DNA of 64,000 nucleotides from a virus: positions 1 through 64,000 of the IMG/VR virus record IMGVR_UViG_3300042914_002629; one strand, written 5' to 3'. Below the pieces are notes generated by a model. It saw nothing but the letters and a program-made list of their open reading frames with translations. It ran no database searches and was not told where the DNA came from. This document shows positions 9,012 to 55,577 of this stretch, one piece after another. Position 1 is the stretch's first letter. Each line of letters begins with the position of its first letter. The position numbers and the translations under genes are program-made.

Positions 9012-9050
9012 TCTTCACAATGTTATAGTGAAGCGACGCGGGAACGTCAA
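9012..9050 (-). promoter_or_regulatory. leftward promoter with CTTCAC...GTGAAG operator
   Basis: Read leftward: -35 TTGACG (9045-9050), 17-base spacer, -10 TATAAC (9022-9027). An inverted repeat CTTCAC (9013-9018) / GTGAAG (9028-9033) brackets the -10 box, and the sequence just downstream is ATTGTGAAGAT, shared with other operon heads. The -35 box overlaps the start codon of the divergent terminase gene, so leftward early and rightward late transcription meet here. Confidence 0.7.
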
Positions 9051-9574
9051 TGGCAAAAACGTCGGCAGAAATGCTGAACATCGATCGCAGGATTTGGGAC
9101 TACCGCCTCGCCGGCCTCGGCACGGCGCAGATAGCCTCTGCCCTGGATATGACCCCTGCCCAGCTCGCAAAGCGCATGGAGCGGGTCAAGCGGCAGATCG
9201 AGCCCGAGATCAGGGACGCGGCCAAGTCGCATGTGGCCCTTCAGTACGCCCGGCTGGAGCGCATGATCCGCGCCATGTGGCCACAGGCCATCGGCAATCC
9301 GGGACGCGGCAAGCCTGGCGACCGCGACCACATCCCGAAGGTGCCGCCCGACCAAGGCGCGATCAGGGAGATCGCCGCTCTCATGCGCGACCAGTCCGCG
9401 CTGCTGACCAAGTCCATCGGCTCGCTGCCGGCCGCCGCCGGAACCTCGGACGCCGCCGACCAGGCCGCAGCCAATGAAGACGAAAACGCAGAAGCCGCAA
9501 GATCCACGCTCGCTGATCGAATTGATCGGTTGCTTGCCACCCGAGCTGCGCAGGGAAGCTCTAGCGGATCTTAG
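9050..9574 (+). CDS. terminase small subunit (by position and fold)
   Basis: 174 residues. Starts with an N-terminal HTH-like segment (IWDYRLAGLGTAQIASALDM), a charged helical middle and a low-complexity Ala/Asp/Ser C-terminus. It directly precedes and overlaps TerL by 101 bases, where the DNA-recognition subunit of the packaging motor normally lies. Sequence identity alone is weak, so the call rests on position and HTH. Confidence 0.65.
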   Translation: MAKTSAEMLNIDRRIWDYRLAGLGTAQIASALDMTPAQLAKRMERVKRQIEPEIRDAAKSHVALQYARLERMIRAMWPQAIGNPGRGKPGDRDHIPKVPPDQGAIREIAALMRDQSALLTKSIGSLPAAAGTSDAADQAAANEDENAEAARSTLADRIDRLLATRAAQGSSSGS

Positions 9575-10937
9575 CCTCAACCAAGCGGAGGCCATCCTCT
9601 ACGACTGGCGGGTGTGGGCGCGTGATGACCAAATCGCCCCGCCTGGCGACTGGGATCAATGGCTCCTGCTGGGCGGACGCGGCGCGGGCAAGACCCGAAC
9701 AGGCTCGGAATGGATCAGGGAGCAGGTCCGCAACGGCATCGGCAAGATCGCGCTGGTGGCCCCGACCGCGGCCGATACCCGAGATGTCATGGTCGAAGGG
9801 GACTCCGGCATTCTGTCGGTCTGCTGGAAGCACGACAAAGACCGCTGGGGCCGCCCCACCGGGCGACCGCTCTATGAGCCTTCCAAGCGCAAGCTGACCT
9901 GGGAGAACGGCGCCTATGCGCTGCTGTTCTCGGCCGAGGAACCCGAGCGCCTTCGCGGCCCGCAGTTCGGCGCCGCGTGGACCGATGAGCTGGCGGCCTG
10001 GAAATACCTGATCGACACCTGGGACATGCTGTCGTTCGGCCTCCGGCTCGGCGACAACCCGCAATGCGTCATTACCACCACGCCGAAGCCGATCAAGCTG
10101 CTGAAAGACATCATGGCGGACGCGGGCACGCGCATCTCCAGCGCGTCGACCTTCGCCAACGCGGCCAACCTGGCGGGCAAATTCCTCAAGCGGGTTCGTG
10201 CAAAGTACGAAGGGACGCGACTGGGCGATCAGGAGCTATACGCCAAGATCCTGGATGACATCGCTGGCGCCCTGTGGAACCGCTCCAATATCGACAAGCA
10301 CCGGCTGCGGATCAAGTTCGATGAGGCGGGCAACCCCTATCGGGTCTGGCCCGACCTTGCGCGCATCGTGGTGGCCGTCGACCCCGCGACCACGGCCACC
10401 GAGAACAGCGATGAGACCGGCATCATCGTGGCGGGCCGGGGCGTGGACAAGCGCGGCTACGTGCTGGACGATTGCTCGGGCATCATGTCGCCGGCCGAGT
10501 GGGGCGAGGCGGCTGTCCTGGCCTATTGGAACCACATGGCGGACGCGGTGGTGTACGAGAGCAACCAGGGCGGCGACATGGTCAGGCACGTGATTAAGTC
10601 CAGCGCCGAAAAGCTGCATCGCGAGGGGAAGATCCGCTCGCCAGAGATCAACATTCGCGGCGTTCACAGCTTCCGCGGGAAAGTGCTTCGGGCCGAGCCC
10701 GTCTCGGCGCTATATGAGCAGGGGCGGATATCGCATGTCGGCGGCTTCGCTGTCCTGGAAGAGCAAATGTGCGCCTTCACCCAGGATTTCGACCGCAAGG
10801 CGATGGGCTATTCGCCCGACCGTGTGGACGCGCTGGTGCATGGGTTCACAGACCTGCTTGCGGACCTGATGGAAATCCCCCTTGTCGATCCGTTCTCGAT
10901 CGAGGGGCTATCGAAATGGAGGCCGGGAATTGGCTGA
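9474..10937 (+). CDS. terL: terminase large subunit
   Basis: 487 residues. Walker A GGRGAGKT at residues 67-74, Walker B/catalytic carboxylate AAWTDE around 168-172, coupling motif TTTPK near 200, and a nuclease domain with VAVDPATTATENSDETG near residue 300 supplying the RNase H-like acidic residues. This is the ATPase-nuclease that drives DNA into the prohead and cuts concatemers. Length is normal for the family. It overlaps the small subunit gene upstream and the portal gene by 8 bases downstream. Confidence 0.95.
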   Translation: MKTKTQKPQDPRSLIELIGCLPPELRREALADLSLNQAEAILYDWRVWARDDQIAPPGDWDQWLLLGGRGAGKTRTGSEWIREQVRNGIGKIALVAPTAADTRDVMVEGDSGILSVCWKHDKDRWGRPTGRPLYEPSKRKLTWENGAYALLFSAEEPERLRGPQFGAAWTDELAAWKYLIDTWDMLSFGLRLGDNPQCVITTTPKPIKLLKDIMADAGTRISSASTFANAANLAGKFLKRVRAKYEGTRLGDQELYAKILDDIAGALWNRSNIDKHRLRIKFDEAGNPYRVWPDLARIVVAVDPATTATENSDETGIIVAGRGVDKRGYVLDDCSGIMSPAEWGEAAVLAYWNHMADAVVYESNQGGDMVRHVIKSSAEKLHREGKIRSPEINIRGVHSFRGKVLRAEPVSALYEQGRISHVGGFAVLEEQMCAFTQDFDRKAMGYSPDRVDALVHGFTDLLADLMEIPLVDPFSIEGLSKWRPGIG

Positions 10938-12450
10938 TACCGAACCGACCAAGGGTCCGGCGATCCCCAGCGCGATGCAGGAGATCGGCGATAGCGCGCT
11001 GCGTCGCACCGGCGGCTATGTGCGGGAAGATTTCCTGCCCGAGCTGCTGGGGTTGCAGGCGGCGCGGACCTACCGGGAGATGTCCTACAATGACCCGGTG
11101 ATCGGTGCCATCCAGTTCGCGATGAAGATGCTCATCAGCCGGGCCGAGTGGGATGTGCAGCCGGCCGACGACACCCCCGCCGCGCAGGAAGAGGGGGAGT
11201 TTGTCGAGGGCATGATGGGCGACATGGTGATGTCGTGGGGCTCCATGATCATGGAAGCCCTCACCATGCTGACCTACGGCTACGCCCCGATGGAGGTGGT
11301 GTGGAAGCGGCGCGGCGGGCAGAACCCCGACAAGATGAAGTCGAGCAAGTTCGATGACGGGATGATCGTTCCCGCCAAGATCGCCCTGCGCGCGCAGTAT
11401 TCCATCACGCAATGGGAATTCGATGAAGTCGGGAATCCGACTTGGTTTTGGCAGATGACCGAAACCCGCGGGATGCTCAAGGTGCCGCTGGCGAAATGCT
11501 TGCTGTTCCGGACCACCGAAGAGCTGAACAACCCGTTGGGCTACTCGATCCTGCGCAACGCCTATCGGCCGTGGCTGTTCAAAAACCGGATCGAAGAGAT
11601 CGAAGGCATCGGGATAGAGCGCGACCTGGCGGGCCTGCCGGTGATGAAGATCCCGGCCTCATACATGGCCGACGACGCCGACCAGCGGATGCGCAACATC
11701 TATGAGATGTGCAAAAACCTTGTGCGCGGCATCCGGCGCGACAAGGAAGAGGGCGTGATCCTGCCCTCGGACATGCAGCGGGATGGCGAAGGCAAGCTGA
11801 CCGGAAACCCCGGCTTCGCGCTGGAGCTGCTGTCCACCGGCGGCAGCCGGCAGTTCGACACCACCAAGATCATTGACCGCTACGACCACCGGATTGCCAC
11901 CTCGACGCTGGCGGATTTCATCTTCCTGGGCCAGCAGGCGGTGGGCAGCTTCGCGCTGTCGAGCGACAAGACCGCCCTGTTTTCGCAGGCGATCGGCGGC
12001 TTTCTCGACATGATCGAGAACGTGTTGAACAGCCTCGTGGAGACCATCTGGCGCCTGAACGGCAAGGATGTGGATCTGATGCCGACGCTGAAGCATGGCG
12101 ACGTGGAGACCCCGAACCTGACAGAGCTGGGTACGTACATCTCGGCGCTGGTCGGCGCGGGCGCGCAGCTCTTCCCCGACGTGGACCTTGAGAACCGGCT
12201 GCGCAGCTTCGGCGGCCTGCCCGAGGCGCCGGAGGATCGCGAGGTGGTGGACGATCCGACCACGGCAGCCATCCTCGGACGCGGCGGCACGCCGCAACAG
12301 CAGATGGCCCGGCAGCAGGCGGCGAAGGCGGCCACCGATGAGGCCAAGCAAGCCGAGAAGGACGCGGCGGTGCCCGCACCTGGCGGCAAGCGGCCCGGCG
12401 CCGGAACCAAGCCCCCGCCGCAGCGTAGCAACCCGAAGGCAACGCGCTAA
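10930..12450 (+). CDS. portal protein
   Basis: 506 residues from a TTG at 10930, chosen for the GGAGG seven bases before it and because earlier codons lie inside terL. A long helical/beta protein with YNDPVIGAIQFAMKMLISRA near the N-terminus, FRTTEELNNPLGYSILRNAY in the middle and a Pro/Ala/Lys-rich C-terminal tail, the pattern of DUF935-type and related siphovirus portals. It forms the dodecameric DNA channel at the capsid vertex. Its place between TerL and a MuF protein is canonical. Confidence 0.85.
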   Translation: MADTEPTKGPAIPSAMQEIGDSALRRTGGYVREDFLPELLGLQAARTYREMSYNDPVIGAIQFAMKMLISRAEWDVQPADDTPAAQEEGEFVEGMMGDMVMSWGSMIMEALTMLTYGYAPMEVVWKRRGGQNPDKMKSSKFDDGMIVPAKIALRAQYSITQWEFDEVGNPTWFWQMTETRGMLKVPLAKCLLFRTTEELNNPLGYSILRNAYRPWLFKNRIEEIEGIGIERDLAGLPVMKIPASYMADDADQRMRNIYEMCKNLVRGIRRDKEEGVILPSDMQRDGEGKLTGNPGFALELLSTGGSRQFDTTKIIDRYDHRIATSTLADFIFLGQQAVGSFALSSDKTALFSQAIGGFLDMIENVLNSLVETIWRLNGKDVDLMPTLKHGDVETPNLTELGTYISALVGAGAQLFPDVDLENRLRSFGGLPEAPEDREVVDDPTTAAILGRGGTPQQQMARQQAAKAATDEAKQAEKDAAVPAPGGKRPGAGTKPPPQRSNPKATR

Positions 12451-13535
12451 TGGCCGTGGACCCGATCCACGCGGCGGCCGAGCGGCTTGAGCCGAAGATC
12501 CGGGACGCGTTCCTGGCGGCCATGGCCCTGATCACCGATCAGGACAACATCGACGCCGTGGTGGCGGCGATCATGCGCGGCGATATCGAGGGTGCCCTGT
12601 CGGCGCTGGGCCTCGGGCCGAGCGATACCCTGCCAGAGCTGGCCAGGGCACTCAGGGCGGGCGTCGAGGCCGGCGGGCTGGCATTGCCCCTCACCATGCC
12701 CGCGAGCCGCGCTGAAGCCCTGCTGGTGCGGTTTGACATGCTCAACCCGCGCACGGTCCAGTTCATGCGCGACTATGAGCTGTCGCTGATCCGGCAGATC
12801 AATGAGAAGACCCGCGAGGGCGTCCGAACCTCATTGCTCAACGGCCTCAACGCAGGCGAGAACCCGCGCACCATCGCGGTGGAGACCAAAAAGGTGCTCG
12901 GGCTCACCTCGAAACAGGTGGGCGCAGTTGATAACTTCCGGTTCGAGCTGGAGCACTTCCACGAAAAGCGAGGCGCCAAGGCGTGGGGCTTGGGCAACTC
13001 CATCAACCGGGCGCCCGGCGGCGCGCAAGTCTCGATCCTCGATCGCAACGGCTTCAACACCGATGGCATTAACGCCCGGCGCCTGCGCGATTTCCGGTTC
13101 GACCCGACGCTGAAAAAGGCGATGGAGACCGGCAAGCCGATCCCGCCCGAGAAGATCGACCAGATGGTCCAGCGGTATCGGGAGAAGATGCTCAAATACC
13201 GGGCTGAGACCATCGCCCGCACCGAAGCCCTGCGCGCGGCCAACGCGGGCGCGCTGGAGACCTGGAACCAAGCCATTGAGGCGGGCAAGACCACCACGGA
13301 TCTTGTGCGCAAGCGGTGGATCGTGGCGCACGATGAGCGGACCTGTCCCGTGTGCCGCCCGATCCCGAAGGCGAACGCGGGCGTCGAGGGCTACGGGATC
13401 AGGATAGACCAGCCCTTTCAGACATCGGTGGGTTCGTTCATGACAGCCCCCGTCCACCCGGATTGCCGATGCAGCGTAATTTTCCGGGTGCTGGAGACCT
13501 GGATGGTGGGCGTGAAAAAGGAGAAGTTCGGATGA
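12450..13535 (+). CDS. MuF-like minor head protein
   Basis: 361 residues. The C-terminal third has the MuF/SPP1 gp7 signature: TIARTEALRAANAGALETW, then a CPVC pair, and PVHPDCRCSVIF near the end; the cysteines and His probably bind zinc. Such proteins are packaged with the portal and help head assembly or DNA ejection. TAATG overlap with the portal gene. Confidence 0.85.
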   Translation: MAVDPIHAAAERLEPKIRDAFLAAMALITDQDNIDAVVAAIMRGDIEGALSALGLGPSDTLPELARALRAGVEAGGLALPLTMPASRAEALLVRFDMLNPRTVQFMRDYELSLIRQINEKTREGVRTSLLNGLNAGENPRTIAVETKKVLGLTSKQVGAVDNFRFELEHFHEKRGAKAWGLGNSINRAPGGAQVSILDRNGFNTDGINARRLRDFRFDPTLKKAMETGKPIPPEKIDQMVQRYREKMLKYRAETIARTEALRAANAGALETWNQAIEAGKTTTDLVRKRWIVAHDERTCPVCRPIPKANAGVEGYGIRIDQPFQTSVGSFMTAPVHPDCRCSVIFRVLETWMVGVKKEKFG

Positions 13536-13927
13536 GCGTCGATGGTGTTGCGATCCGCGCTTACAGCGCAGAGATTCCCCTGTACCGGCAGATGTACGCC
13601 GACGAGATTTACCTAGCCGGCAAGCGCCTGTTCCCGAACGGCGGCGGCACCCCGGCGTCGGCGATCGTGAGCCTCACCCTGCCGGCCGGCACCCCCGACA
13701 ACACCATCACGGCCGTGGCCAACCTGTCCGCCACCACATGCGTGCTGTCGACCGCCAACACCTACACCGACGCCGCGGTCAAAACCGCCGTGGACAACGC
13801 CATCGCTGCGCTTCAGACCAAGATCGACGCGGCCTTCAACACGGTGGAGCAGAACATCCTGAACGCCGCGAAGAAGATCAATGATGATCTGGCGGCCGAG
13901 CGGGCTTATGGGGTGATTGCACCGTAA
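13532..13927 (+). CDS. hypothetical virion-associated protein
   Basis: 131 residues in an ATGA overlap with the MuF gene. A beta-rich N-terminal half with repeated Thr/Ala (TITAVANLSATTCVLSTANT) and a helical C-terminus (AIAALQTKIDAAFNTVEQNI) that could form a coiled coil. No family recognised; position suggests a head-associated role. Confidence 0.6.
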   Translation: MSVDGVAIRAYSAEIPLYRQMYADEIYLAGKRLFPNGGGTPASAIVSLTLPAGTPDNTITAVANLSATTCVLSTANTYTDAAVKTAVDNAIAALQTKIDAAFNTVEQNILNAAKKINDDLAAERAYGVIAP

Positions 13928-13958
13928 CGGCCTCTCGGGCCTCACAGGCCAGCAGGAA

Positions 13959-13997
13959 GGCGGCAGCTATGCGATCGAGCGCGGCTGCCGCCGTTTT
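13959..13997 (+). terminator. intrinsic terminator-like hairpin inside the head operon
   Basis: GGCGGCAG (13959-13966) pairs with CTGCCGCC (13985-13992), followed by GTTTT. It lies in the 189-base gap between the MuF-linked gene and the polyvalent protein gene, so it may attenuate downstream expression. The rest of the gap is discussed under findings. Confidence 0.55.
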
Positions 13998-14116
13998 CAT
14001 GACCGCCGCACCGATCAGACCGGAGCGGCCCGCGATCATGCGGAACCTGCTCGCTGTCGCGTGCAGTTCGTCATAGATTGCGGTTTCCTGCCCATCCATC
14101 GACGGACTGTAAGCCG

Positions 14117-18721: not shown

Positions 18722-18735
18722 GCTAGGGTGCGCGA

Positions 18736-19633: not shown

Positions 19634-19686
19634 CGGCCCCGTCATTTAGAGTGATTTTGCGCGCTACCCATAGGGGTTGCGTGCGT

Positions 19687-42342: not shown

Positions 42343-42355
42343 TCGTCGGACAGCA

Positions 42356-42390
42356 AAAGGGCCGGGCCTCTGATGAGCGCCCGGCCCTTT
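42356..42390. terminator. bidirectional intrinsic terminator
   Basis: AAAGGGCCGGGC (42356-42367) pairs perfectly with GCCCGGCCCTTT (42379-42390) around an 11-base loop. Rightward it is followed by TTTCC and ends the late operon; leftward it is followed by TTTT, so it also suits transcripts arriving from 43149. Confidence 0.8.
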
Positions 42391-43149
42391 CCGTTTGGAG
42401 GCACCCTAGGGGCCTCTCGATCGCGACCGTGGCGTCCGGCAGTTGGAAGCCACGGCGGCGATGTCGCCGCGTCCGGCGCTATGCCGTATTCAAGCCCGCA
42501 CGCTGATCGGGCTTTACTACCGGCGGCGGGGCGGACGAACCGGCCCCCGCAACCCCCACCCCTAGCTGGGCAGGGCACTCCTGCGCCAAGCTGCGCAGGA
42601 TCTGGAGGATAGGGGGCGGTTTGGCAATCCGCTTCTCGGCCGCTAGACCGTGTCCTGATGCCGCTTAGACGACACCCTATCCACTCGGACACCCCATCGG
42701 GGTGAAACTCATGGCCCCCGCCTGCCTCGGGCGGTATTCGCTTAGAGCCGGCGGATCGCCGACCCCGGCACGGACTCGAACCGTGGTTGCGCTTGCTCTC
42801 GGCCAGCGACCGGTAACGCTCCGGCTTCCTCGTAGAGTGGGGCCGACAAGGGATCGGCCAGACTTCAATGCAATGTAGTCCGGGCCAGCATTCGGCCCCA
42901 CTCGAACCCCGTCCCCAATCTCGAAAGAGGGCTTGCACCTCCACCGGCGATGCGGCCCTGCCGTTTGCAACCGGCCTGGCCTACACACACCGCCTCTCCA
43001 CGTCGCTGGTGCAGGGCCGTGGATGCCCATCGTTCCGCCAGCTCGGCGCCTCGGACTTCTCGGGGTCAGTCGCGAAGCATCCCACAGCCTCCCGCGCCTT
43101 CGTCCAGGGGGGACTAGACTTGGCGCTGGTGTGTCCCGAGGGGATCAAC
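42356..43149 (-). ncRNA. candidate large structured non-coding RNA, about 0.8 kb
   Basis: No supported gene lies in 42343-43298. The sequence is packed with long inverted repeats: 42835-42846 with 42892-42903 (12 bases, perfect), 42607-42614 with 42675-42682 (8), 42579-42586 with 42593-42600 (8), 42492-42498 with 42508-42514 (7), 42427-42433 with 42449-42455 (7), 42455-42460 with 42465-42470 (6), among others. Read leftward it has a promoter at 43156-43185, an intrinsic terminator at 42356-42390, and T-loop motifs TTCGAGT twice, one on a perfect 5-bp stem (CACGG/CCGTG). The 8-bp helix encloses two hairpins as a junction. Size, phage setting and architecture recall GOLLD and ROOL RNAs; no similarity is claimed. 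The leftward direction is inferred. Confidence 0.6.
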
Positions 43150-43155
43150 TGCTAA

Positions 43156-43185
43156 ATAATATTGTGAACCGACCCGGTCACACAA
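43156..43185 (-). promoter_or_regulatory. leftward promoter for the candidate large RNA
   Basis: Read leftward: -35 TTGTGT (43180-43185), 18-base spacer, -10 TATTAT (43156-43161), in the only AT-rich patch of the gene-free region. A TTCACAAT half-site (43161-43168 on the plus strand as ATTGTGAA) sits between the boxes, the same half-site as at other operon heads. Confidence 0.55.
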
Positions 43186-43297: not shown

Positions 43298-43298
43298 G

Positions 43299-43852: not shown

Positions 43853-45037
43853 TCAGACCTTGGCCAGCATCTTGGCCAGGACCGCTTCGGCCTTCGTGCG
43901 GTCATCCTGGTGCGGGATCTTGCGAGCCCAGGCCGTGCCCGCGTTGAAGAGCTGCCAGAGGTTGCTGGGCGCGTCCAGCGCCTTGCCCTGGCCGTTCGGG
44001 TCGGTGCCCACGATGGCCTCGGCGGTCTTGACCGGGAACTTCAGCCGCTCATGGAGCAGCTTCACCTGATCGGCCTTGCGCTCGGCATTGTCGCCCGTGA
44101 ACTTCACACCCTTGGCGGCCAGCACCTTGGCCACCACCGGAGCCGCGGCCGAGTTGGTGAAGGATGCCAGGGCCGGCGGCGCCAGCTCGGCGAACTTCTC
44201 AGGGGCGAAATTGCTGTGGCGGATGGTCAGCTCCGACACGTCTTCCACGCCCCACAGGTTGCGGTTCTGGCACACGCCACGGAGCATCATGGTCTTGAGC
44301 GAGAACTTGGCCGACCCGGTCTCGCTGTTGCGGAGCATGAAGCCCCGGAACATCAGGTCGGGCGACCCGTCGTCCAGCAAGCCAACCTCGATCGGGTTGC
44401 GATCATCGCAGAGGAAGATGCACACGTCGCGGTCGGAGGCGTAGAGGGTGGTGCCTTCCTTCGTGACCGGCGTCTCGGGATCGTAGTTCACGGTGCCATT
44501 GGCGTTCAGGCTGCCCCAATCGATCGTGCCCGGCACCTTCCAGCGGTCATCATGGCCGATCATGGCGATCACCTGATCCACCACCTCATGATCGAGGATG
44601 CGGCCGTAGCTCGGGCTGGTCAGAGCGCGCAGATAGCTCGACCCATCGGCCCGATGGTAGGCCATCAGCTTCTCCGGCGCCGCGTGCATCAGGCCGTGCT
44701 GGAGGTTGATGGCAGCCAGCGCCGCCGGGATGCGGCGAAGGTAGCCGGCCGGCGCTTCGGCCTTCTGGGCGAGCTGGTCGAATGACCAGTGGGTCATGGA
44801 GAGCTGGGAGTCGATCCCCTCGATCTGGAGGGCGATCCGCTGGGCATCCTGGGGGTTGGCCAGCACACGCACATCGCGGCTTTCCACCACGGTGGCGAGG
44901 GACTGATCGGCCCACAGCTTCACCTGATCGCGCAGGTCGGTCAGGTTCAGGAACCGCTGGTCATCCGGGCGGCTCATCCACTGTGCGGAGAGCGACCCAT
45001 CCAGATGGCCCTTGGAGGTGGCTGCGGTGGCGTACAT
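43853..45037 (-). CDS. DUF932 protein
   Basis: 394 residues. Matches the DUF932 phage/plasmid family: FDQLAQKAEAPAGYLRRIPA, LRALTSPSYGRILDHEVVDQ, GSPDLMFRGFMLRNSETGSA and MMLRGVCQNRNLWG. These proteins are abundant in phages and plasmids but their biochemical role is not settled. The ribosome motif here is the variant CGAAAGGGTC. It has its own promoter-operator at 45081-45123, suggesting separate early control. Confidence 0.8.
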   Translation of the reverse strand: MYATAATSKGHLDGSLSAQWMSRPDDQRFLNLTDLRDQVKLWADQSLATVVESRDVRVLANPQDAQRIALQIEGIDSQLSMTHWSFDQLAQKAEAPAGYLRRIPAALAAINLQHGLMHAAPEKLMAYHRADGSSYLRALTSPSYGRILDHEVVDQVIAMIGHDDRWKVPGTIDWGSLNANGTVNYDPETPVTKEGTTLYASDRDVCIFLCDDRNPIEVGLLDDGSPDLMFRGFMLRNSETGSAKFSLKTMMLRGVCQNRNLWGVEDVSELTIRHSNFAPEKFAELAPPALASFTNSAAAPVVAKVLAAKGVKFTGDNAERKADQVKLLHERLKFPVKTAEAIVGTDPNGQGKALDAPSNLWQLFNAGTAWARKIPHQDDRTKAEAVLAKMLAKV

Positions 45038-45080
45038 GTCGTGACCCTTTCGGTTTTGGCTGCCGGGACAGGTTCGTCCC

Positions 45081-45123
45081 TCTTCACAATTGTGAAGATA
45101 GGCGCCTCGACAGCCTGGGTCAA
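45081..45123 (-). promoter_or_regulatory. leftward promoter with perfect palindromic operator
   Basis: Read leftward: -35 TTGACC (45118-45123), 17-base spacer, -10 TATCTT (45095-45100). The perfect 18-base palindrome TCTTCACAATTGTGAAGA (45081-45098) overlaps the -10 box and extends into the start region, an ideal repressor site. It is the best copy of a half-site shared by several operon heads in this window. Confidence 0.8.
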
Positions 45124-45135
45124 CATTTATTTTTC

Positions 45136-45461: not shown

Positions 45462-45469
45462 GATCTTTA

Positions 45470-45766: not shown

Positions 45767-46301
45767 GCGGCGTTCTCCACAACTCGGGTGTGTCGCTGCC
45801 TCTGGCATAGAGGGGGTGGCGGGGGTAGGGCTTGGACGACAGCCGATAGATGGGCTTGTCGACCAGCAGCACATGGCCCTCCGCGATCTTGGCGGCCTCG
45901 GCGTGCATACCCTTGAGCGCGCCATAGGCGGCCAGGACCATTCCGGCGCCGGAGGCGTAGCTTTCGATCCATCGGCCATTCATCGGACCCACAGCCTCTT
46001 CCAGGCTCTTCGGGAGGGCCTTCGGGTCGGTTGATCGGTAAGACATGACGTTGGACACGATGAGGCCGCTGTGCCCCCACGCCTTGGCGAACCCGATCAT
46101 GCGACGCACGGTCGGATCGTTTTGGAAGGCATCTGCGGTACTCGGGTTCATCGCCAGCACCATCAGAGGCTTGCCCTCATGGGCTGGGCTTGCGTAGGTC
46201 GACCAGTCAATGGTCAGCAGGTAGCGGTGGATCTTGTCGAGAGAAAAGACCGCGAGCCGGAAATCCTCATCCCGGTGCCCGCGGCCGTTATCTTCGATCA
46301 G
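45759..46301 (-). CDS. DUF1643 family protein
   Basis: About 180 residues. The core AVFSLDKIHRYLLTIDW, MVLAMNPSTADAFQNDPTVR, MIGFAKAWGHSGLIVSNVMS, YRSTDPKALPK and HPRHPLYA is the DUF1643 pattern, a family of unknown activity common in phages and bacteria. The start is uncertain: the only ATG/GTG/TTG before the core lies inside the upstream small membrane gene (GTG 46394). A CTG at 46301 overlapping that gene's stop as CTGA mirrors the coupling used elsewhere, so I place the start there. Confidence 0.7.
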   Translation of the reverse strand: MIEDNGRGHRDEDFRLAVFSLDKIHRYLLTIDWSTYASPAHEGKPLMVLAMNPSTADAFQNDPTVRRMIGFAKAWGHSGLIVSNVMSYRSTDPKALPKSLEEAVGPMNGRWIESYASGAGMVLAAYGALKGMHAEAAKIAEGHVLLVDKPIYRLSSKPYPRHPLYARGSDTPELWRTPHG

Positions 46302-46396
46302 GCACCCACCGACCGTTTGCCGGCTGCCCAGCAGATCGCCACCCCGTAGCCCAGGATCGCCGCCCATGCCGTGCCCCCGATGATGATGGTCCACAT
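46298..46396 (-). CDS. 32-residue membrane peptide
   Basis: Translates as a TM peptide MWTIIIGGTAWAAILGYGVA then ICWAAGKRSVGA. The ribosome motif CGAGAGGGCG lies five bases before its ATG, and it is the first start after the promoter at 46432-46460, so it is likely translated despite its size. Its stop overlaps the proposed DUF1643 start. Confidence 0.5.
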   Translation of the reverse strand: MWTIIIGGTAWAAILGYGVAICWAAGKRSVGA

Positions 46397-46431
46397 GATA
46401 TCGCCCTCTCGCGTTCAGTCTCTATGTCTTC

Positions 46432-46460
46432 ACAATACGCAAGTCTAGGCGACGCCGCAA
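46432..46460 (-). promoter_or_regulatory. leftward promoter with TCTTCACAAT half-site
   Basis: Read leftward: -35 TTGCGG (46455-46460), 17-base spacer, -10 TATTGT (46432-46437). The half-site TCTTCACAAT covers 46427-46436, overlapping the -10 box as at 45081; the other arm is degenerate (GCAAG). Lies at the 3' end of the HNH gene and would drive the two small membrane genes and DUF1643. Confidence 0.55.
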
Positions 46461-46891: not shown

Positions 46892-46892
46892 C

Positions 46893-47476: not shown

Positions 47477-47481
47477 GTCTC

Positions 47482-48717: not shown

Positions 48718-48738
48718 GGATTGCCCTTTCGTCTCGGA

Positions 48739-48951
48739 TCAGCGGCGGATTTTCACCGCGGCCAGCTCATAGCCCAAGGCGGCGAACACCTTGGTTACGC
48801 TGTCCACGCGCGTCTTGCGCTGCCCCTGCTCCATGTAGCAGATAGCAGCCTCCGACATCCCGGCGCGCTCGGCGAGAGCCTTCATCGTGAGCCCAGCGGC
48901 GAGCCGCTTTTCCTTCACGAACGCCGGGATGTCAGAGAGCCGATCCGCCAT
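48739..48951 (-). CDS. XRE-family HTH regulator
   Basis: 70 residues. RLAAGLTMKALAERAGMSEA followed by AICYMEQGQRKTRVDSVTKV is a complete Cro/CI-type helix-turn-helix with little else, similar in size to Cro or antitoxin-like regulators. It is the best candidate for binding the TCTTCACAAT palindromes. Start overlaps the RecT stop by one base. Confidence 0.8.
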   Translation of the reverse strand: MADRLSDIPAFVKEKRLAAGLTMKALAERAGMSEAAICYMEQGQRKTRVDSVTKVFAALGYELAAVKIRR

Positions 48952-50903
48952 CAGCCGGCCTTCGGCGGCAGCGTCACGCCATTGGCCTGGAACCGCTTCT
49001 CCATGGTCTTGTACCAGGGCGCCATTTCATCGCGCACGCGACCGATGATGGCCTCGTTGGCGGCGGCGAACGCCTTGTAGTCCGCCGGCCCGGCCTTGGG
49101 ATCATTCCGCAGATCATCCAGCCCCTTGGATATCGCGGCGAACAGTTGCTTGGGGTCGGCCGCTGCGTCGATGTCGACCGGCTTGCCGAACTTCGATCCG
49201 GTCGCCGCCGGCTTCACCGTGGTGGGGGTGGCGTTGGCCTGCGCCTTCAGTAGGGCCTTGAGCTGGGCTTCCACGACCGTGCCGAAGCCGAGATCGTCCA
49301 GCACCTCCTTGTTCGCCTCGTAGAATTCAGTCACCGCCACCGTGGTGGTCAAGGTCAGGAGGTGGCTGTGGACCCAAGCCACGGCTGCCTCTTCCTCTTC
49401 ATCCCCGAAGCTGCGGATTCCTTCCTCGACCGCGAAATCCAGAGCGGGACGCTCCTGCTCTTCCTCGGACTGGCCATCGCCGACATCAACCGCACCGGCG
49501 CGCGGATCATCGTCGCCCGGATGGCCAGCGGCGGCCATCGCCTCGCGCTCGGCCGCCTCGCGGGCCAGGCGCTCATCTTCCTCGGCCTTCGCCGCGGTGG
49601 CCTTGGCCTTGTCGGCGGCCTTCTCGACCTTCGCCGCCGCGCTGGCGAGGTTCTGAAGGTGCTCCCGCAGTCCCTTGTGATCGGTCTCCAGCACCGCCAG
49701 GCTCTGGACGTTGGCATTCCAGAAGTCCGCGGCCTTGGTATAGCCGGTGCCCTTCAGCGCGGCCGTGTAGCCCTTCCACGCCTCTTCGATCTGCTGGGCG
49801 TGCTGCGGCATCCAGAAGTCGGTCACGACGCCATCCGGCGATGTGAGGGTGACCTTGAATTCGGCGGCCGGCGGGTTGACCTGGCCGGCGGTGGGCTCGA
49901 CATCGTCGCTGGTCGGCTCGCCGCCCTCATCCACCATCTGCGCGCCGCCGACCGTACCCGAGGGTTCGGTCACCGGCTCAGCCTCGGGCTCTGCGGCGGG
50001 TGCGGTCACCGGCGCCTTGGGGTCACCGGCCTTGCCGCGGCCCCTGCGCGCCGCCGGAGCCTTGCCAGCGGGCGTGGTGGTTCCGAGGGCACTGCCGGCC
50101 TCGGCGGCTGCCGGAGAGTCCTCCTGCGCGCCCTGGCGCATGTCGGCGCCGCTGGCGAAGGTCGACGCGCTCGGGCGATGGATGATCCTGTCGACCGGGT
50201 CGGGATCGGGGATCACCTCGTAGGCCACGTCCTGGATTTCCTCGGCGAGCGGCAGGCCGAAGAGCACATGCGGGCAGTAGAGGTTGATCAGCCACGACGC
50301 GGCACGCCATTCCAGCATCCGCTTGGGGATGGTGAAATACTTCTCATTCTGGGTCCAACCATCGTCGGACGCGGTCTGCATGTCCACGGTCTGCTCAACG
50401 TAGGACTCGCCCTTGACGTTGCGCAGGCTGGCATAGGCCGTGACCGACCAGTTCCGGACCTTGCGGGGCGTCTCTTTGTAGGTCGGCTTGCGCTCCTGAG
50501 AATCCCAGCCGGTCTTGATCTTCTGGATGGCCGTGATTTCTCCCAGGTCCACGGCCTTGAACCGGATCACGCCGTCGAAGATCCCAGAGCTGTTGGCGCG
50601 CGAGATGGCGTATTTGGCGTACCAGCCGGCGCGTCCGTTGGCCACGTAGAGGGATTGGAACAGCATCAGCGGATCTTGCCGCGTGGCGCGGGCGATGCCG
50701 AGCACCACGAAGCAATCGGCGATATGCTCTTCGCCCTGGAACGCCTTCGGCACCAGTTGGGACGCGGACATCAGCTTCGCCGCCCGCTGGAGCTGCCCGA
50801 ACAGGGCTTCGTTCTCCCACACCTCGAAAGCGTTGAACGCCATGGACTCCATCGGGACCATGACGGGCTTGGCGAGGGAGAGATCGGTGGATTGTTCAGC
50901 CAT
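48951..50903 (-). CDS. RecT-like annealing protein with long C-terminal extension
   Basis: 650 residues. Residues 20-260 resemble RecT single-strand annealing proteins: LVPKAFQGEEHIADCFVVLG, DPLMLFQSLYVANGRAGWYA, KYFTIPKRMLEWRAASWLIN. RecT is normally 270-370 residues; here about 390 more follow, Ala/Pro/Glu-rich with a coiled coil near residue 430. It would promote phage recombination-dependent replication together with a nuclease; VRR-NUC at 52228 is a possible partner. Confidence 0.75.
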   Translation of the reverse strand: MAEQSTDLSLAKPVMVPMESMAFNAFEVWENEALFGQLQRAAKLMSASQLVPKAFQGEEHIADCFVVLGIARATRQDPLMLFQSLYVANGRAGWYAKYAISRANSSGIFDGVIRFKAVDLGEITAIQKIKTGWDSQERKPTYKETPRKVRNWSVTAYASLRNVKGESYVEQTVDMQTASDDGWTQNEKYFTIPKRMLEWRAASWLINLYCPHVLFGLPLAEEIQDVAYEVIPDPDPVDRIIHRPSASTFASGADMRQGAQEDSPAAAEAGSALGTTTPAGKAPAARRGRGKAGDPKAPVTAPAAEPEAEPVTEPSGTVGGAQMVDEGGEPTSDDVEPTAGQVNPPAAEFKVTLTSPDGVVTDFWMPQHAQQIEEAWKGYTAALKGTGYTKAADFWNANVQSLAVLETDHKGLREHLQNLASAAAKVEKAADKAKATAAKAEEDERLAREAAEREAMAAAGHPGDDDPRAGAVDVGDGQSEEEQERPALDFAVEEGIRSFGDEEEEAAVAWVHSHLLTLTTTVAVTEFYEANKEVLDDLGFGTVVEAQLKALLKAQANATPTTVKPAATGSKFGKPVDIDAAADPKQLFAAISKGLDDLRNDPKAGPADYKAFAAANEAIIGRVRDEMAPWYKTMEKRFQANGVTLPPKAG

Positions 50904-50969
50904 GTGGATTCCTTGGTGAGCCTAGGGTGGATGCGGGTTTCAGGGGTATTTTACCCGCCGTGAACCGAA

Positions 50970-51677
50970 TTACGAAACGACGAGTGACCGTTCCCCGAAC
51001 ACCAGCCGGGCGCCTGGCACCGCGTTCTCGCGGGCGTGGGCGACGGACCTGTTCACCTCATCGGGATCATCGCCCGCCGCCTCGATCGCGGCCTGCGTCA
51101 CTTCCTCGATCTTGGCCGTGATCGCCGCCTCATCGGGCGCCATCATCTCCAGCGGGATCAGGCCCGGATTGGTGATTTCGAGCACCAGCTTGGCGGCCCG
51201 TCGCGTGGCGAGGTGGCCATGCTCATTCCGGAGCTGGTCGATCCCCGCCTTTGTCATGTACTCCAGAAGGGCCTTGTTCGCCGCCGCCTTGGCCGCGGCC
51301 AGATCATCCGCGGTGCGTTTGGCTGTGGCGGCGACCTTCGCGGTCGCGTCCGTGAACACCTTCGTGACCGCCTTGCGCTTGGCGTCGATGTCGTTGGTGA
51401 CCAGCGTGGCCTGTTTCGAGCACGTGATCAAGGCTTGCGCCTGCTCTTCGGTGAGCGGGCCTTCCGGCACCTTCACGGACAGCGGCGTCGCCGAGCGCGC
51501 CAGCACCAGCGCCAGCTCAGTGATGGCCGCGGCCACCATCTCGGCCAAGCCCATCTTGTCGCTGTTATCGCCGATGCCGGCCGGCGGCAGCGATGAAATC
51601 CCATCGGCGACGGCCGCAACAGCGGCCTGGTCGACCGGCACCGCCGGGATGACCGCACTCTTTCGCCTGCCCGCCAT
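50970..51677 (-). CDS. RecT-linked conserved phage protein
   Basis: 235 residues. A coiled coil with many Lys/Ala (residues 90-150, IDAKRKAVTKVFTDATAKVA) is followed by a conserved-looking C-terminal part, HGHLATRRAAKLVLEITNPG, LIPLEMMAPDEAAI and VPGARLVFGERSL. Proteins of this build are common beside phage annealing proteins. Likely an accessory to recombination; activity unknown. Confidence 0.6.
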   Translation of the reverse strand: MAGRRKSAVIPAVPVDQAAVAAVADGISSLPPAGIGDNSDKMGLAEMVAAAITELALVLARSATPLSVKVPEGPLTEEQAQALITCSKQATLVTNDIDAKRKAVTKVFTDATAKVAATAKRTADDLAAAKAAANKALLEYMTKAGIDQLRNEHGHLATRRAAKLVLEITNPGLIPLEMMAPDEAAITAKIEEVTQAAIEAAGDDPDEVNRSVAHARENAVPGARLVFGERSLVVS

Positions 51678-52159
51678 TATCGCGCCTCATGAAGCATCGT
51701 CTTCACCCTTCTAATGTCTATTCGTTTCAACGGATTAGCCGCCGGACTCCACGGCTCATACTTTCGAGCCCAAGCCACGGTGGCCATCATGTGCCGCCAG
51801 CGCCAGAACGGGATGAAACGCCCGTGCATCCATAGCTTGTCGAGCGCGATCGGGATGTCCACAACCGCAGCCATGAGCTGCACCGATGGCCCGCCGCCTG
51901 GCACCTCGCGGCACCATGTCTCGGGGTCGGAAAGCGGCTCACGCCGGCCGTCGACATGCTCATACACCCGCGGCCGATCGAAAGGGCATGGCCGCCAGAT
52001 CACCGCCGGTGCCCATGGCCGGTCTTTGCCGAACCGGTAGGCGAAGAACGCCGGGTGATAGACATCCATGTAACGGGTTTGGTCTTCGCACTGGCCCGGC
52101 GCCTTGGCCGCTCCCGTGCGCCCGGTGGGCCGGATGCCGTTGTGGCTGTGGTGGATCAT
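51677..52159 (-). CDS. hypothetical protein, first gene of recombination operon
   Basis: 160 residues starting MIHHSHNGIRPTGRTGA, eight bases after GAGAGGGCA (52168-52176). Trp/His-rich, with no recognised family. Overlaps the next gene by one base (ATGG/TGA junction). Transcription probably starts in the divergent region with the TTCACAA repeats at 52199-52229. Confidence 0.6.
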   Translation of the reverse strand: MIHHSHNGIRPTGRTGAAKAPGQCEDQTRYMDVYHPAFFAYRFGKDRPWAPAVIWRPCPFDRPRVYEHVDGRREPLSDPETWCREVPGGGPSVQLMAAVVDIPIALDKLWMHGRFIPFWRWRHMMATVAWARKYEPWSPAANPLKRIDIRRVKTMLHEAR

Positions 52160-52196
52160 CTTGCATTTGCCCTCTCGCCGGCAGAACATCACCCCA

Positions 52197-52229
52197 TCTT
52201 CACAACTGGTCAAGGGCATTATTCACAAT
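52197..52229. promoter_or_regulatory. divergent control region with paired TTCACAA sites
   Basis: TCTTCACAA (52197-52205) and TTCACAAT (52222-52229) occur as direct repeats 23 bases apart between the leftward RecT operon and the rightward VRR-NUC gene. The second site overlaps the nuclease start codon. Leftward, TTGACC (52207-52212) is a possible -35 box but no convincing -10 follows, so the promoter call is weak. Confidence 0.45.
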
Positions 52230-52782
52230 GCGACATCCTCGCCGCGTCCCGCGCCAATGCTCGGCCGAAGGGCCGATGCAAGCCGCCATCGCCTCGTACC
52301 TCGACGGCCTGGCCGCGACATTCCCGTGCGACATAGCATGGGCACACCCGCCCAACGAGGGCAGCCGCGATATCGTCTATGCCAAAAAGCTGAAGGGCCA
52401 GGGGGTGAAGGCGGGCGACCTCGACGTGGCCCTCTACATGGCCGGCGGCTGCACGGTCTTTGTCGAGCTGAAGACATTCGACGGCAGCATGAAGCCGGAG
52501 CAGCTATCCCGGATCGCCACCCTCTCGGGCCTCGGCTTCACCACCTACGTGATCGCCGCCATCGCGCCCGCCGCGGCCGTGGACGCCATGTCGGCCGTGG
52601 TGGGGACCGAGGTGCTGTCCGCCTCCATGCGCCGCTCCATCGGCCCCAAGGTGCCGTTCCGGGTGCCGTACATGACCATGACGCCGTTGAGCTGGTATGT
52701 CTGGCCGGGCCGGGATGTCGTGGCCACGGGGCACAAAAGCGTCACATCGATTATTCGGCACTATGAGAAGCAATCCCGGTGA
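52228..52782 (+). CDS. VRR-NUC domain nuclease
   Basis: 184 residues. Core: GPMQAAIASYLDGLAATFPC, AHPPNEGSRD, KAGDLDVALYMAGGCTVFVE then LKTFDG, QLSRIATLSGLGFTTYVI; the GD-x12-ElK pattern is the VRR-NUC/PD-(D/E)XK active site. It likely resolves branched DNA or acts with the RecT-like protein. Start ATG 52228 overlaps a TTCACAAT site and lacks a Shine-Dalgarno; an alternative ATG at 52276 has GAAGGG close by but loses residues before the conserved Glu. Confidence 0.8.
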   Translation: MRHPRRVPRQCSAEGPMQAAIASYLDGLAATFPCDIAWAHPPNEGSRDIVYAKKLKGQGVKAGDLDVALYMAGGCTVFVELKTFDGSMKPEQLSRIATLSGLGFTTYVIAAIAPAAAVDAMSAVVGTEVLSASMRRSIGPKVPFRVPYMTMTPLSWYVWPGRDVVATGHKSVTSIIRHYEKQSR

Positions 52783-53027
52783 TCAGTTCCGATGACCGCG
52801 ACCGGGTGATCAAGCTGCTCACGCTGGCCGTCGACCAGTCCGAGGCGGTGGATGGCAGCGAGGCGCAGGCGGCCCTGGCGGCGGTGCGTCGCATCCTCTC
52901 CAGCCGCGGCGCCTCGCTGGCCGATGCTCTGATGGATCAGGAGGCGCTTGCGCTGCTTCGCGAAGCCCAGGCGCGGCCCGGCGCGGGATCGGCCGTGTTC
53001 GACCCGCTGCGCGATTTCGAGGGGTAG
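52779..53027 (+). CDS. small helical protein
   Basis: 82 residues from a GTG overlapping the nuclease stop (GTGA). Charged, alpha-helical (DDRDRVIKLLTLAVDQSEAV). No family recognised. Confidence 0.55.
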   Translation: MISSDDRDRVIKLLTLAVDQSEAVDGSEAQAALAAVRRILSSRGASLADALMDQEALALLREAQARPGAGSAVFDPLRDFEG

Positions 53028-53361
53028 GAGCGCGGCCGGCGGGGAGGACTCCAACGCGCTCCCATTGCGCTCACGCCAGAGGCGAGGCTACGGCATGGAG
53101 GTTCACCGTGTCGCGCCGGCCACAGCAGGACTATAGGCCGCACCGTCCCCTTGCGAAAGGGGGTGGGGTGGTCCAAGAATGGAGAAGCCCCGCCGGGCTG
53201 CGAACCCAGGCGGGGCTATGGAGGGCGAGGCGCCGTTGCAAGCGGCCCGCGCCGCGACAGGCGGAGAAAGGACAGGTACGCCCGTGAGGGATAGTCTAGC
53301 GAAACGCCACGGCAATGCAAGGGGCGCCCGGCCATCGGGCGCGGACGGGGGTTCATGACCA
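53028..53361 (+). other. 334-base gene-free structured region
   Basis: No plausible gene. Holds several strong inverted repeats: GAGCGCG/CGCGCTC at its left edge, AGCCCCGCC/GGCGGGGCT near 53190-53215, GCCG-TTGCAAG-CGGC at 53232-53246 and GCGCCCG/CGGGCGC just before the replication gene. Could be a leader RNA, a small ncRNA or an origin region; no T-runs mark ends. Confidence 0.4.
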
Positions 53362-54387
53362 ATGCGTGAATATGGGAAGGTCGCGCCATCCTTCTGGACT
53401 GGCCGCACCGGTAAAAGCCTACGCCAAGACAGGGACGCGCAAGTCATTGCGCTCTACCTGATGACATCTCCACATGCGACGATGTACGGGGTCTATCACT
53501 GCCCGATCCTCTACATCGCCCACCACACCGGATGCTCCATAGAAGGGGCTTCCAAGGGGCTTCAAAGGCTCATTGATGGGGGGTATTGCACATACGATCA
53601 CGACACCGAGACCGTTTTTGTGCATGAGATGGCCCGTTTCCAGATCGGTGAGTCTCTGAAGCGCGGCGACAAGCGCGTTTACGGCACCATCGCCGAGCTA
53701 GACCGGATGCCAAAAGGCGTTATCCGTGAAGGGTTTAGGCGCAGATACGGCGCCGCCTACCATCTCCCGCCGCCTTCACAATCCGATGAGTTTCAAGCAA
53801 GCCCCTTGGAAGCCCCTTCCCAGCCCCTCCGAAGCCAGGAGCAGGAGAAGGAGAAGGAGAGAGAGAAGGAACAGGAAAAGAAAAGCACTGCTATCGCAGT
53901 GCCAAAAGAAAGCGCGGCGCCGCCTCAAGCCGACCCGATGCCATCGGCTCAACCGACACCATCAGCACCCCTCCCGGCCATCGCCACGCCGAAGGCTCGG
54001 GCCAGGCAACCCACCCGCATCCCGTCCGATTGGTCACCCACAGAAAAGGATCTGGCCTTTGCCGAGAGCCGCGGCTTCGACGTGGTGAGGGCCATGGAGA
54101 TCAGCGACCAGTTCCGGGACCACTACCTCGCCTCCAGCGGCAAGGGCTCGACCAGCCCCGATTGGGAAGCGAAGTGGCGGACGTGGATCGGCAACGAGGT
54201 GAAATACGCCGCCGAGCGCGCAGAGCGCGGCCCCAGGAGCAACGGCGGTGCCAGGCGCAACGGCGTGGCTGGCGACTACGAAGCCCACCAGCGGCTCTAC
54301 CGGCAGCGCGGTGGCGACCAGCAGCCAGCACCGCACCATGAGCCCGACGAAATCGACCGCATTCTAGGAATTGGAGAACCCCGTTGA
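53362..54387 (+). CDS. replication initiator-like protein
   Basis: 341 residues. N-terminal 150 residues resemble a winged-helix replisome organiser (FWTGRTGKSLRQDRDAQVIA, YIAHHTGCSIEGASKGLQRL). A highly charged linker of Glu/Lys repeats (about residues 160-175) and a Pro-rich stretch lead to a C-terminal helical domain (DWSPTEKDLAFAESRGFDVV ... WEAKWRTWIGNEV) typical of phage initiators that recruit helicase. Likely recognises the phage origin. Confidence 0.65.
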   Translation: MREYGKVAPSFWTGRTGKSLRQDRDAQVIALYLMTSPHATMYGVYHCPILYIAHHTGCSIEGASKGLQRLIDGGYCTYDHDTETVFVHEMARFQIGESLKRGDKRVYGTIAELDRMPKGVIREGFRRRYGAAYHLPPPSQSDEFQASPLEAPSQPLRSQEQEKEKEREKEQEKKSTAIAVPKESAAPPQADPMPSAQPTPSAPLPAIATPKARARQPTRIPSDWSPTEKDLAFAESRGFDVVRAMEISDQFRDHYLASSGKGSTSPDWEAKWRTWIGNEVKYAAERAERGPRSNGGARRNGVAGDYEAHQRLYRQRGGDQQPAPHHEPDEIDRILGIGEPR

Positions 54388-54971
54388 GCGACCACAACGA
54401 CGGCCCGAAGCGGCTGGGCGGCCTGCCCGAGATCATCCCCACCGATGCCCAGGCGATCGGCGCACCACGCCAGGACGCCAGCGAGAACTTCGCCAACTCC
54501 GACCCTCGGGACATCAACCGCCGGCTGGAGAGCCGCGTCCGCGCCCTGTGCGGCGGCCAGTTCCGGACCAACGTCTCATCCAGGTTCAACGGCGAGATGT
54601 TCTCGCATTCCGTGGTCGAGGGGCTGGACTGGGATCTGCCCGTGGAGAGCCGCGGCAAGGTCCGTGAGCTGCTGGCCCGCGTCACGAAGCCGGCGCCCGA
54701 TCGCATGATCATCGCCGCGCTCTACGACCTGCGCAAGATCACCATCAGCCGCGAGCGGGAGTCGACGGAAGAGGGCAAGGCGGCCGAGAGCGAAGTGTGG
54801 TTGCGCCTGCTGGCGAAATACCCGGCCGACGTGGCGGTCCACACGCTCCGGGAATGGACCCAGCGGGTCAACGGGCGCTTCTGGCCGACCTGGCATGAGC
54901 TGGAGCAGATCCTTCGGTCCAAATCCTCGATCCGCACCGTGATTGCCGCCAAGCTGGACCGCGAGCCGTGA
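54384..54971 (+). CDS. hypothetical replication-linked protein
   Basis: 195 residues from a TTG overlapping the upstream stop. Helical with REWTQRVNGRFWPTWHELEQ near the C-terminus, as in proteins found after phage replication initiators. Possibly a helicase loader or cofactor; no Walker motif seen. Confidence 0.55.
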   Translation: MSDHNDGPKRLGGLPEIIPTDAQAIGAPRQDASENFANSDPRDINRRLESRVRALCGGQFRTNVSSRFNGEMFSHSVVEGLDWDLPVESRGKVRELLARVTKPAPDRMIIAALYDLRKITISRERESTEEGKAAESEVWLRLLAKYPADVAVHTLREWTQRVNGRFWPTWHELEQILRSKSSIRTVIAAKLDREP

Positions 54972-55465
54972 GCGCCACCGATGGCGCTGTGCGCGCCCTG
55001 CTGATCGAGAAGCTGAAAGCCGGCTACCGGGCGCCGGATCACGTCGCCACCACCGTGGCGGGGATGGCCTACCTCGGCGAGCTGGCCGATACGCTGATCC
55101 GGATGCACCCCGAGCCCGACGAATTCGACCATGTTTGGAACGAATTCAAGCGGGAGTGGACGCGCCGCTATTGGCCACCCTTCGGCGAGCTGCCCAGCCG
55201 GCTCACGAAGCTACGGGCCAAGGCTGCGGAGAACGCCAGGGCCGCGGACACCGCGCACCGGCAGACCTACGACCAGCGCCGGGCCAAGCCCGAGAAGCCG
55301 TACCATGATGGGGAATTTGTCGCTACCTATGGGACGCTGCTGGAGCAGGCCGATAGCAACGACCCCGAGGAAGCCGCATGGGCCAAGCGGTGGCTCGCCA
55401 TGGGCGATGCATTGATCAAGCGATACGACGACAACGATCAGCCGCGAAATATCCAGCAGAAGTGA
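54968..55465 (+). CDS. hypothetical replication-linked protein
   Basis: 165 residues from a GTG in GTGA overlap. Central FDHVWNEFKREWTRRYWPPF echoes the WPTW segment of its upstream neighbour, so the two may be related. C-terminal half charged and helical. Function unknown. Confidence 0.55.
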   Translation: MSATDGAVRALLIEKLKAGYRAPDHVATTVAGMAYLGELADTLIRMHPEPDEFDHVWNEFKREWTRRYWPPFGELPSRLTKLRAKAAENARAADTAHRQTYDQRRAKPEKPYHDGEFVATYGTLLEQADSNDPEEAAWAKRWLAMGDALIKRYDDNDQPRNIQQK

Positions 55466-55535
55466 CGCCAAGGCCAGATGCCAAACCGGAGGGAATGACT
55501 TCGGGGTGAGAATTTCGAGACGATCGAAAGACCCC

Positions 55536-55577
55536 TTGACAGGAGTCCTTGCCATCTTCACGATACGGCAAGATTTA
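55536..55577 (+). promoter_or_regulatory. rightward promoter region with CTTCAC...CAAG site
   Basis: In the 159-base gap between operons. TTGACA (55536-55541) or TTGCCA (55549-55554) can serve as -35 box, the latter 17 bases before GATTTA (55572-55577). The dyad CTTCACGATACGGCAAG (55556-55572) lies across the spacer, a degenerate copy of the shared operator. Confidence 0.5.

What the first reader, a model, noticed from the sequence alone, without database searches (positions are those of the whole stretch)
9012..55577. A shared TCTTCACAAT operator marks early operon heads
The same half-site occurs at five or six operon heads: 9012-9033 (dyad around TATAAC), 43161-43168, 45081-45098 (perfect 18-base palindrome over TATCTT), 46427-46436, 52197-52229 (twice) and 55556-55572. 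At 9012, 43161, 45081 and 46427 it overlaps or touches a leftward -10 box with correct 17-18 base spacing to a -35 box. This points to one phage repressor or anti-repressor controlling early genes and the candidate RNA; the XRE protein at 48739-48951 is the natural candidate.
Basis: partly seen in the sequence, partly recalled or inferred. Interest (0 to 1): 0.7.

Follow-up and report, generated by a model that had tools for sequence, protein, structure and literature searches.

The report
Shared operator before phage operons
A short DNA word, ATTGTGAAGA, sits at the promoters of most non-structural gene blocks of an uncultivated phage far more often than chance allows, so one regulator, probably a phage repressor, likely controls them together, which is a known kind of phage control in a virus with no close relative.

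Summary
An unbiased k-mer count over the intergenic DNA of the whole 70,944-bp virus record finds two dominant words: a ribosome-binding box (CGAAAGGGCA) and ATTGTGAAGA/TCTTCACAAT. Nine intergenic copies with at most one mismatch stand against 0.12 expected (0 of 1000 simulations). The four best sigma70-like promoter cores of the record (9022, 45095, 55559, 66391) all carry the word at or beside the -10 box. It occurs in both orientations and once as a perfect 18-bp palindrome, which suits a double-stranded operator better than a leader RNA or a fixed promoter element.

The proposed regulator is less certain. The record has two XRE proteins; the one at 66759-67334, second gene behind the motif-bearing promoter at 66392, is a better candidate than 48739-48951. 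Binding is untested. The distant relative Erythrobacter phage ZS04 lacks the word but has its own palindrome before four leftward genes, including the equivalent divergent region. It works like dispersed operators of P1 C1 or mycobacteriophage L5: a new member of a known kind.

The parts
9012..9034 (-). Motif ATTGTGAAGA (9021 to 9012) directly after the -10 box TATAAC; an inverted, two-mismatch copy ends at 9034
   Evidence: TTGACG-17-TATAAC is the best-scoring promoter core of the record; 38 bp before the start codon at 8973
9022..9050 (-). Leftward promoter core TTGACG-17-TATAAC of the operon 8973 to 5366
   Evidence: score 11.0, highest of 37 intergenic regions
43161..43170 (+). Weak motif copy ATTGTGAACC (two mismatches) touching a leftward -10 box TATTAT (TTGTGT-18-TATTAT) at the head of a non-coding, foldable stretch
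45081..45098 (.). Perfect 18-bp palindrome TCTTCACAATTGTGAAGA, two overlapping motifs, covering part of the -10 box
45095..45123 (-). Leftward promoter core TTGACC-17-TATCTT of the DUF932 gene 43853-45037
   Evidence: score 10.5
46427..46436 (-). Exact motif; overlaps a weak core TTGCGG-17-TATTGT; about 30 bp before an ATG with ribosome-binding box
52197..52206 (-). Motif GTTGTGAAGA (one mismatch) in the spacer of TTGACC-17-GATGTT, head of the leftward operon 52159 to 43299
52220..52229 (-). Motif ATTGTGAATA (one mismatch), same orientation 23 bp upstream; also reads as a DnaA-box-like TTATTCACA
55555..55564 (-). Motif ATCGTGAAGA (one mismatch) in opposite orientation to gene 55625-56731, overlapping the -10 of TTGACA-17-CACGAT
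48739..48951 (-).
8058..8067 (-). Exact motif inside a gene; probably chance

Best explanation
ATTGTGAAGA (consensus ATTGTGAAGAT) is a dispersed double-stranded operator for one phage-encoded repressor. Bound over the -10 and start region, or the spacer, of sigma70-type promoters, it would block host RNA polymerase at the non-structural operons (9012, 45081, 46427, 52197/52220, 55555, and outside the window 66392 and 70462) and possibly at a non-coding RNA head (43161). The likeliest repressor is the 191-aa XRE protein at 66759-67334 of the record, made from an operon that starts behind its own copy of the site and so autoregulated; it would shut these operons down as it accumulates. Shown: the sites, their enrichment, held-out recurrence and coincidence with promoter cores. 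Inferred: repression, timing and identity of the protein.
For: Word-choice-corrected enrichment and counts. Held-out copies at 66392 and 70462 at gene heads. The four best promoter cores of the record all carry it. A -35-like hexamer (5 or 6 of 6) lies near 6 of 9 sites, 5 of 9 after dropping a hexamer made of the motif's own letters, against 17.7% of 4552 intergenic positions. It reads with the downstream gene at 6 of 8 non-palindromic sites and against it at 55555 and, if the RNA runs leftward, 43161, plus a palindrome, so it acts as DNA in either orientation. Only two XRE proteins among the 73 proteins scanned; the larger lies behind the 66392 site. ZS04 carries a different palindrome before four leftward genes, including the positionally equivalent divergent region.
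Against: No binding or expression data. Most sites are half-sites: the mirrored half at the palindrome's register matches 3.25 of 9 letters over 8 sites, one of which is the motif's own A, whereas XRE repressors usually bind dyads. Promoter cores at 46427, 52220, 43161 and 70462 are weak or absent. No relative of the 191-aa protein was found in viral or genome contigs, so protein and site cannot be linked by co-occurrence. Its model is poor beyond the HTH (mean pLDDT 51.6). The word is absent at up to one mismatch from ZS04, and an exact search found no ATTGTGAAKA in Mae-JY30.
Confidence: 0.58

Rival explanations
1. The word is part of the promoter itself: a -10/discriminator block (TATTGTGAAGA) read by RNA polymerase or by a phage-modified polymerase, with no repressor.
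For: At 46427 and 66392 TATTGT/TATCGT is a possible -10 at 17 bp from a -35. Six of eight non-palindromic sites read with the downstream gene. One similar promoter, TTGACA-18-TATTGTGAATA followed by GAAAGG, exists in the distant relative L010.
Against: In the two strongest promoters (9022, 45095) the -10 is another hexamer and the word starts 0 and 4 bp after it, so its register to the core is not fixed; at 52197 it lies in the spacer; at 55555 it is reversed.
Confidence: 0.17
2. It is the binding site of a host regulator that the phage exploits.
For: Neither phage XRE protein is tied to the site by direct evidence; the host is unknown.
Against: The 16-mer CTTCACAATTGTGAAG has 71 genome contigs matches, mostly in genera I recall as A+T-rich (Bacteroidota, Bacillota), one or a few per genome, as expected by chance, with no clade standing out by title. 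Only the palindrome was tested, not the half-site.
Confidence: 0.12
3. It is an element of the mRNA leader acting on translation or RNA stability.
For: Six sites lie 21-47 bp before a start codon next to a strong ribosome-binding box.
Against: It overlaps promoter -10 and spacer sequences, is reversed at 55555, and is a DNA palindrome at 45081.
Confidence: 0.06
4. It is a replication-initiator (DnaA-like) site.
For: 52219 reads TTATTCACA, which fits TTWTNCACA, beside the replication genes.
Against: No other motif copy fits TTWTNCACA; the only other match in the record is coding.
Confidence: 0.03

Closest known systems
P1 C1 repressor with dispersed asymmetric operators
   Same: Several copies of one asymmetric site spread over a phage genome at promoters of separate operons; regulator gene behind its own site (candidate here). 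PMC8546580 (passages read) gives 22 dispersed operators with an asymmetric 17-bp consensus.
   Different: 10-11 bp word, other sequence, fewer copies, one perfect palindrome; C1 was not searched for by name, and the family lists shown name none; no plasmid prophage shown.
Mycobacteriophage L5-type operators/stoperators (cluster A)
   Same: Short asymmetric sites in promoters and short intergenic gaps, mostly in one orientation to transcription; a 183-residue repressor with N-terminal HTH (PMC9283540, passages) against 191 aa with N-terminal HTH here.
   Different: L5 has more than 20 13-mers, also as stoperators in short intergenic spaces; here about eight loci, mostly at promoter cores, and two in reverse. 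A second DNA-binding domain could not be seen in the model.
Lambda-type CI/Cro switch
   Same: XRE helix-turn-helix proteins; operator over -10/start region.
   Different: Lambda operators are dyads clustered at two promoters (recalled); here they are mostly half-sites spread over the genome.
Erythrobacter phage ZS04 operon-head palindrome GTTGCTGCGACNGTCGCAGC (found here)
   Same: Distant relative with collinear genes; shared element before four leftward genes, near the DUF932 gene and at the divergent region before the terminase.
   Different: Different sequence, dyad in the -35/-10 spacer; ZS04 has one MucR-type match, none listed here.

Membership tests
Dispersed phage operator set (P1 C1 / L5 kind) | One word recurs at several separated operon heads beyond chance | tested here: met
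Dispersed phage operator set (P1 C1 / L5 kind) | Sites overlap promoters | tested here: met
   Four of four best cores; weak at 46427, 43161, 70462
Dispersed phage operator set (P1 C1 / L5 kind) | A phage-encoded repressor binds the site | not testable with these tools
   Two XRE candidates only
L5-type stoperators | Fixed orientation to transcription | tested here: not met
   Reversed at 55555; palindrome at 45081
L5-type stoperators | Monomeric repressor with second, Stoperator DNA-binding domain | tested here: inconclusive
   Residues 72-171 modelled at pLDDT under 50
Lambda-type XRE operator | Dyad at each site | tested here: not met
   Only 45081 is a perfect dyad; no second half at that register in 8 other sites
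XRE (HTH_3) regulators | HTH_3 domain above the curated cut-off | tested here: met
   66759-67334: 56.1 bits; 48739-48951: 37.5 bits; cut-off 23
DnaA box | TTWTNCACA | tested here: not met
   Only one motif site fits (52219)

The most novel reading that the evidence does not exclude
A phage lineage without a detected integrase uses a genome-wide, mostly asymmetric operator read by a two-part XRE protein to switch all non-structural operons and a large non-coding RNA at once; in relatives the operator positions persist while the operator sequence is replaced outright, as if whole regulons had been rewired together with their repressor.
Probability: 0.15. Interest if true: 0.6.

Novelty: new member of a known kind. 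Interest (0 to 1): 0.4.

Why it matters
It gives a virus with almost no database relatives a testable wiring diagram: which operons are switched together, and two candidate switches. The comparison with ZS04 suggests that collinear phages keep operator positions but swap the operator word, which would let immunity or timing specificities diverge quickly; that can be tested in the cultured Erythrobacter phage.

Tried and rejected
Exact 18-bp palindrome in viral contigs: 3 contigs, copies of one A+T-rich coding-like stretch, taken as chance. Motif plus ribosome-binding box in viral contigs: 3 contigs, one match each, in 51-54% G+C sequence with a single copy of the ribosome-binding box; L085's lies inside a frame, the others look coding; taken as chance. 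16-mer palindrome in genome contigs: 71 stretches, read only as titles, chance-like. Close relatives by megablast and by RecT-like, DUF932, terminase, portal, clamp-like and XRE proteins: none but L009, an identical terminase/portal fragment, and distant L006, L007, L008, L010. Shared word in Mae-JY30 bases 1-50000: best -log10 P 7.5, within the spread that chance gave in this virus. S-ESS1 was fetched but not analysed for motifs. Structure search of the 191-aa model: no match at E 0.001 or better. Paper search for the palindrome letters: one unrelated nematode paper in the listing. Searches for shared operators in lytic phages: nothing of use.

My gene calls come from a home-made codon-bias caller plus four genes added by hand; intergenic boundaries depend on them. 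The null that counts raw hits of the best 10-mer without normalising by composition does not separate the motif (9 against null mean 7.8), because G+C-rich words dominate it; the normalised test does. The -35 test counts 52197 and 52220 as separate sites.

Full report
What the window is. The window is bases 1-64000 of an uncultivated virus record of 70,944 bases, about 63-69% G+C in 2-kb blocks. No phage record matches either tested part of it (1-25000, 40000-64000) by megablast. Family scans give terminase, portal, major head protein, endolysin, a RecT-like protein, a clamp-like protein and a DnaD-like loader. A reading frame that starts at 70519 runs on through the record's end into base 1 onwards, so the map is probably circular and the site at 70462 heads the operon 70519 to 5264. 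The operon map is: leftward 8973-5366; rightward late genes 9071-42342; leftward 52159-43299; rightward 52276-62822; leftward 66250-62983; rightward 66423-70454 and on to 5264. The Pfam list for 73 of its proteins shows no integrase family; the PHROGs list shows only 25 of 81 families, so this is not a full exclusion.

Is the motif real? A k-mer count over 37 intergenic regions, made without reference to the finding, returns two words above all others: CGAAAGGGCA, which lies where ribosome-binding sites lie, and ATTGTGAA/TCTTCACAA; 7 of 9 copies of ATTGTGAA in the record are intergenic. Against an order-2 Markov model the word scores -log10 P 15.0 for TATTGTGAAG and 13.8 for ATTGTGAAGA, where the best of all 10-mers in 200 simulated sets averages 4.7 and never passes 7.8. 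Nine intergenic copies with up to one mismatch (the palindrome counting twice) stand against 0.117 expected, 0 of 1000 simulations reaching it; the record holds 12 such copies in all, so 3 are coding (8058, 53773, 56780). The un-normalised version of the same test does not separate it.

Where it sits. Scoring every intergenic region for TTGACA/TATAAT cores with 16-18 bp spacers, the four best cores are 9022 (TTGACG-17-TATAAC), 45095 (TTGACC-17-TATCTT), 55559 (TTGACA-17-CACGAT) and 66391 (TTTACA-17-TATCGT), and all four carry the motif at or beside the -10. Three of these -10 hexamers (all but 9022) share letters with the motif, which can help their score; their -35 hexamers do not. A -35-like hexamer lies near 6 of 9 sites, 5 of 9 without one made of motif letters, against 17.7% of intergenic positions. 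46427, 43161, 52220 and 70462 have weak cores. The motif reads with the downstream gene at 9012, 46427, 52197, 52220, 66392 and 70462, against it at 55555 and, for a leftward RNA, at 43161, and both ways at 45081. Its register to the -10 varies. These facts favour a protein site on DNA over a promoter element or a leader RNA.

Symmetry. Only 45081-45098 is a perfect dyad. In the eight other sites the mirrored half at that register matches 3.25 of 9 letters on average, and one of these is the motif's own A; 9012 has a second arm 5 bp further off. So the site is mostly asymmetric.

Who binds it? Of 73 scanned proteins two carry HTH_3 domains: 48739-48951 (70 aa) and 66759-67334 (191 aa). The second lies behind the promoter at 66391 with the motif on its -10, after one 108-aa gene, which is the layout of an autoregulated repressor. 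No relative of it was found in viral or genome contigs, and phage records give only 3 weak HTH matches, so co-occurrence cannot be tested. Its model is credible only for the HTH. The 70-aa protein's best solved-structure match by sequence is a HigA antitoxin. One WYL-like match just under the cut-off (60032-60529) is a third, weak candidate.

Relatives. Erythrobacter phage ZS04 is a distant relative: major head protein 41%, DUF932 34%, portal 24%, head morphogenesis 29% and a methyltransferase 40% match, in the same order and, for DUF932, on the same leftward block. It has no copy of the word with up to one mismatch. After masking its own repeated ribosome-binding box, its leading word belongs to a palindromic element, GTTGCTGCGACNGTCGCAGC, found with at most two mismatches at 5325, 5926, 40903 and 41374, each before a leftward gene; 5926 lies in the divergent region before the terminase, as 9012 does here, and 40903 and 41374 lie upstream of the DUF932 gene, as 45081 and 46427 do here. 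Three of the four overlap a TTGCTG-16/17-TAnnnn core. Markov copies of ZS04 give on average 2.4 hits at five mismatches or fewer; the low-mismatch count was not simulated. The element was found after the fact and deserves its own test.

Known kinds. Dispersed asymmetric operators are known from P1 C1 (22 sites, 17-bp consensus; PMC8546580, passages) and from L5-type mycobacteriophages (more than twenty 13-mers, orientation tied to transcription, monomeric repressor of 183 residues; PMC9283540, passages). This case works like them but is not shown to be a member of either: orientation is not fixed, and no repressor has been tested. I judge it a new member of a known kind.

Noticed in passing
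window 42343-43155, - strand: About 800 bases without called genes between convergent operons; 42360-43155 on the - strand folds better than 20 of 20 shuffles (z -3.3), with no Rfam family at gathering score; tRNA-like GGTTCGAGTCC letters on the - strand. It may be a large structured RNA started at the 43161 site.
   Followed up: partly
window, many gene starts, e.g. 8980, 46403, 48720: The ribosome-binding box CGAAAGGGCA is the most over-represented intergenic word of the record (16 copies with up to one mismatch against 0.6 expected).
   Followed up: partly
record 65302-65323 and 66288-66309 (L002 1803-1824 and 2789-2810), - strand: GTGATCGAAGGGACGRTACAAC, a 22-bp repeat with one mismatch, at two leftward heads; possibly a second promoter class.
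   Followed up: partly
L011 5325, 5926, 40903, 41374 (Erythrobacter phage ZS04): Palindromic GTTGCTGCGACNGTCGCAGC element before four leftward genes; ZS04 also has one MucR-type regulator match.
   Followed up: partly
record 70519-70944 joined to 1-639: One reading frame crosses the record's ends, so the genome map is probably circular.
   Followed up: yes
L010 3285-3350: Promoter TTGACA-18-TATTGTGAATA followed by GAAAGG in a distant relative of the clamp-like gene; one copy only.
   Followed up: partly
L009: A 4781-bp contig from another metagenome encodes identical terminase and portal stretches, so this virus or a very close one occurs elsewhere.
   Followed up: no
window 62909-62982: tRNA-Trp (cca) gene.
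   Followed up: no
window 46298-46396, - strand: A possible 32-codon gene with a ribosome-binding box directly behind the 46427 site, before the DUF1643 gene; read by eye.
   Followed up: no
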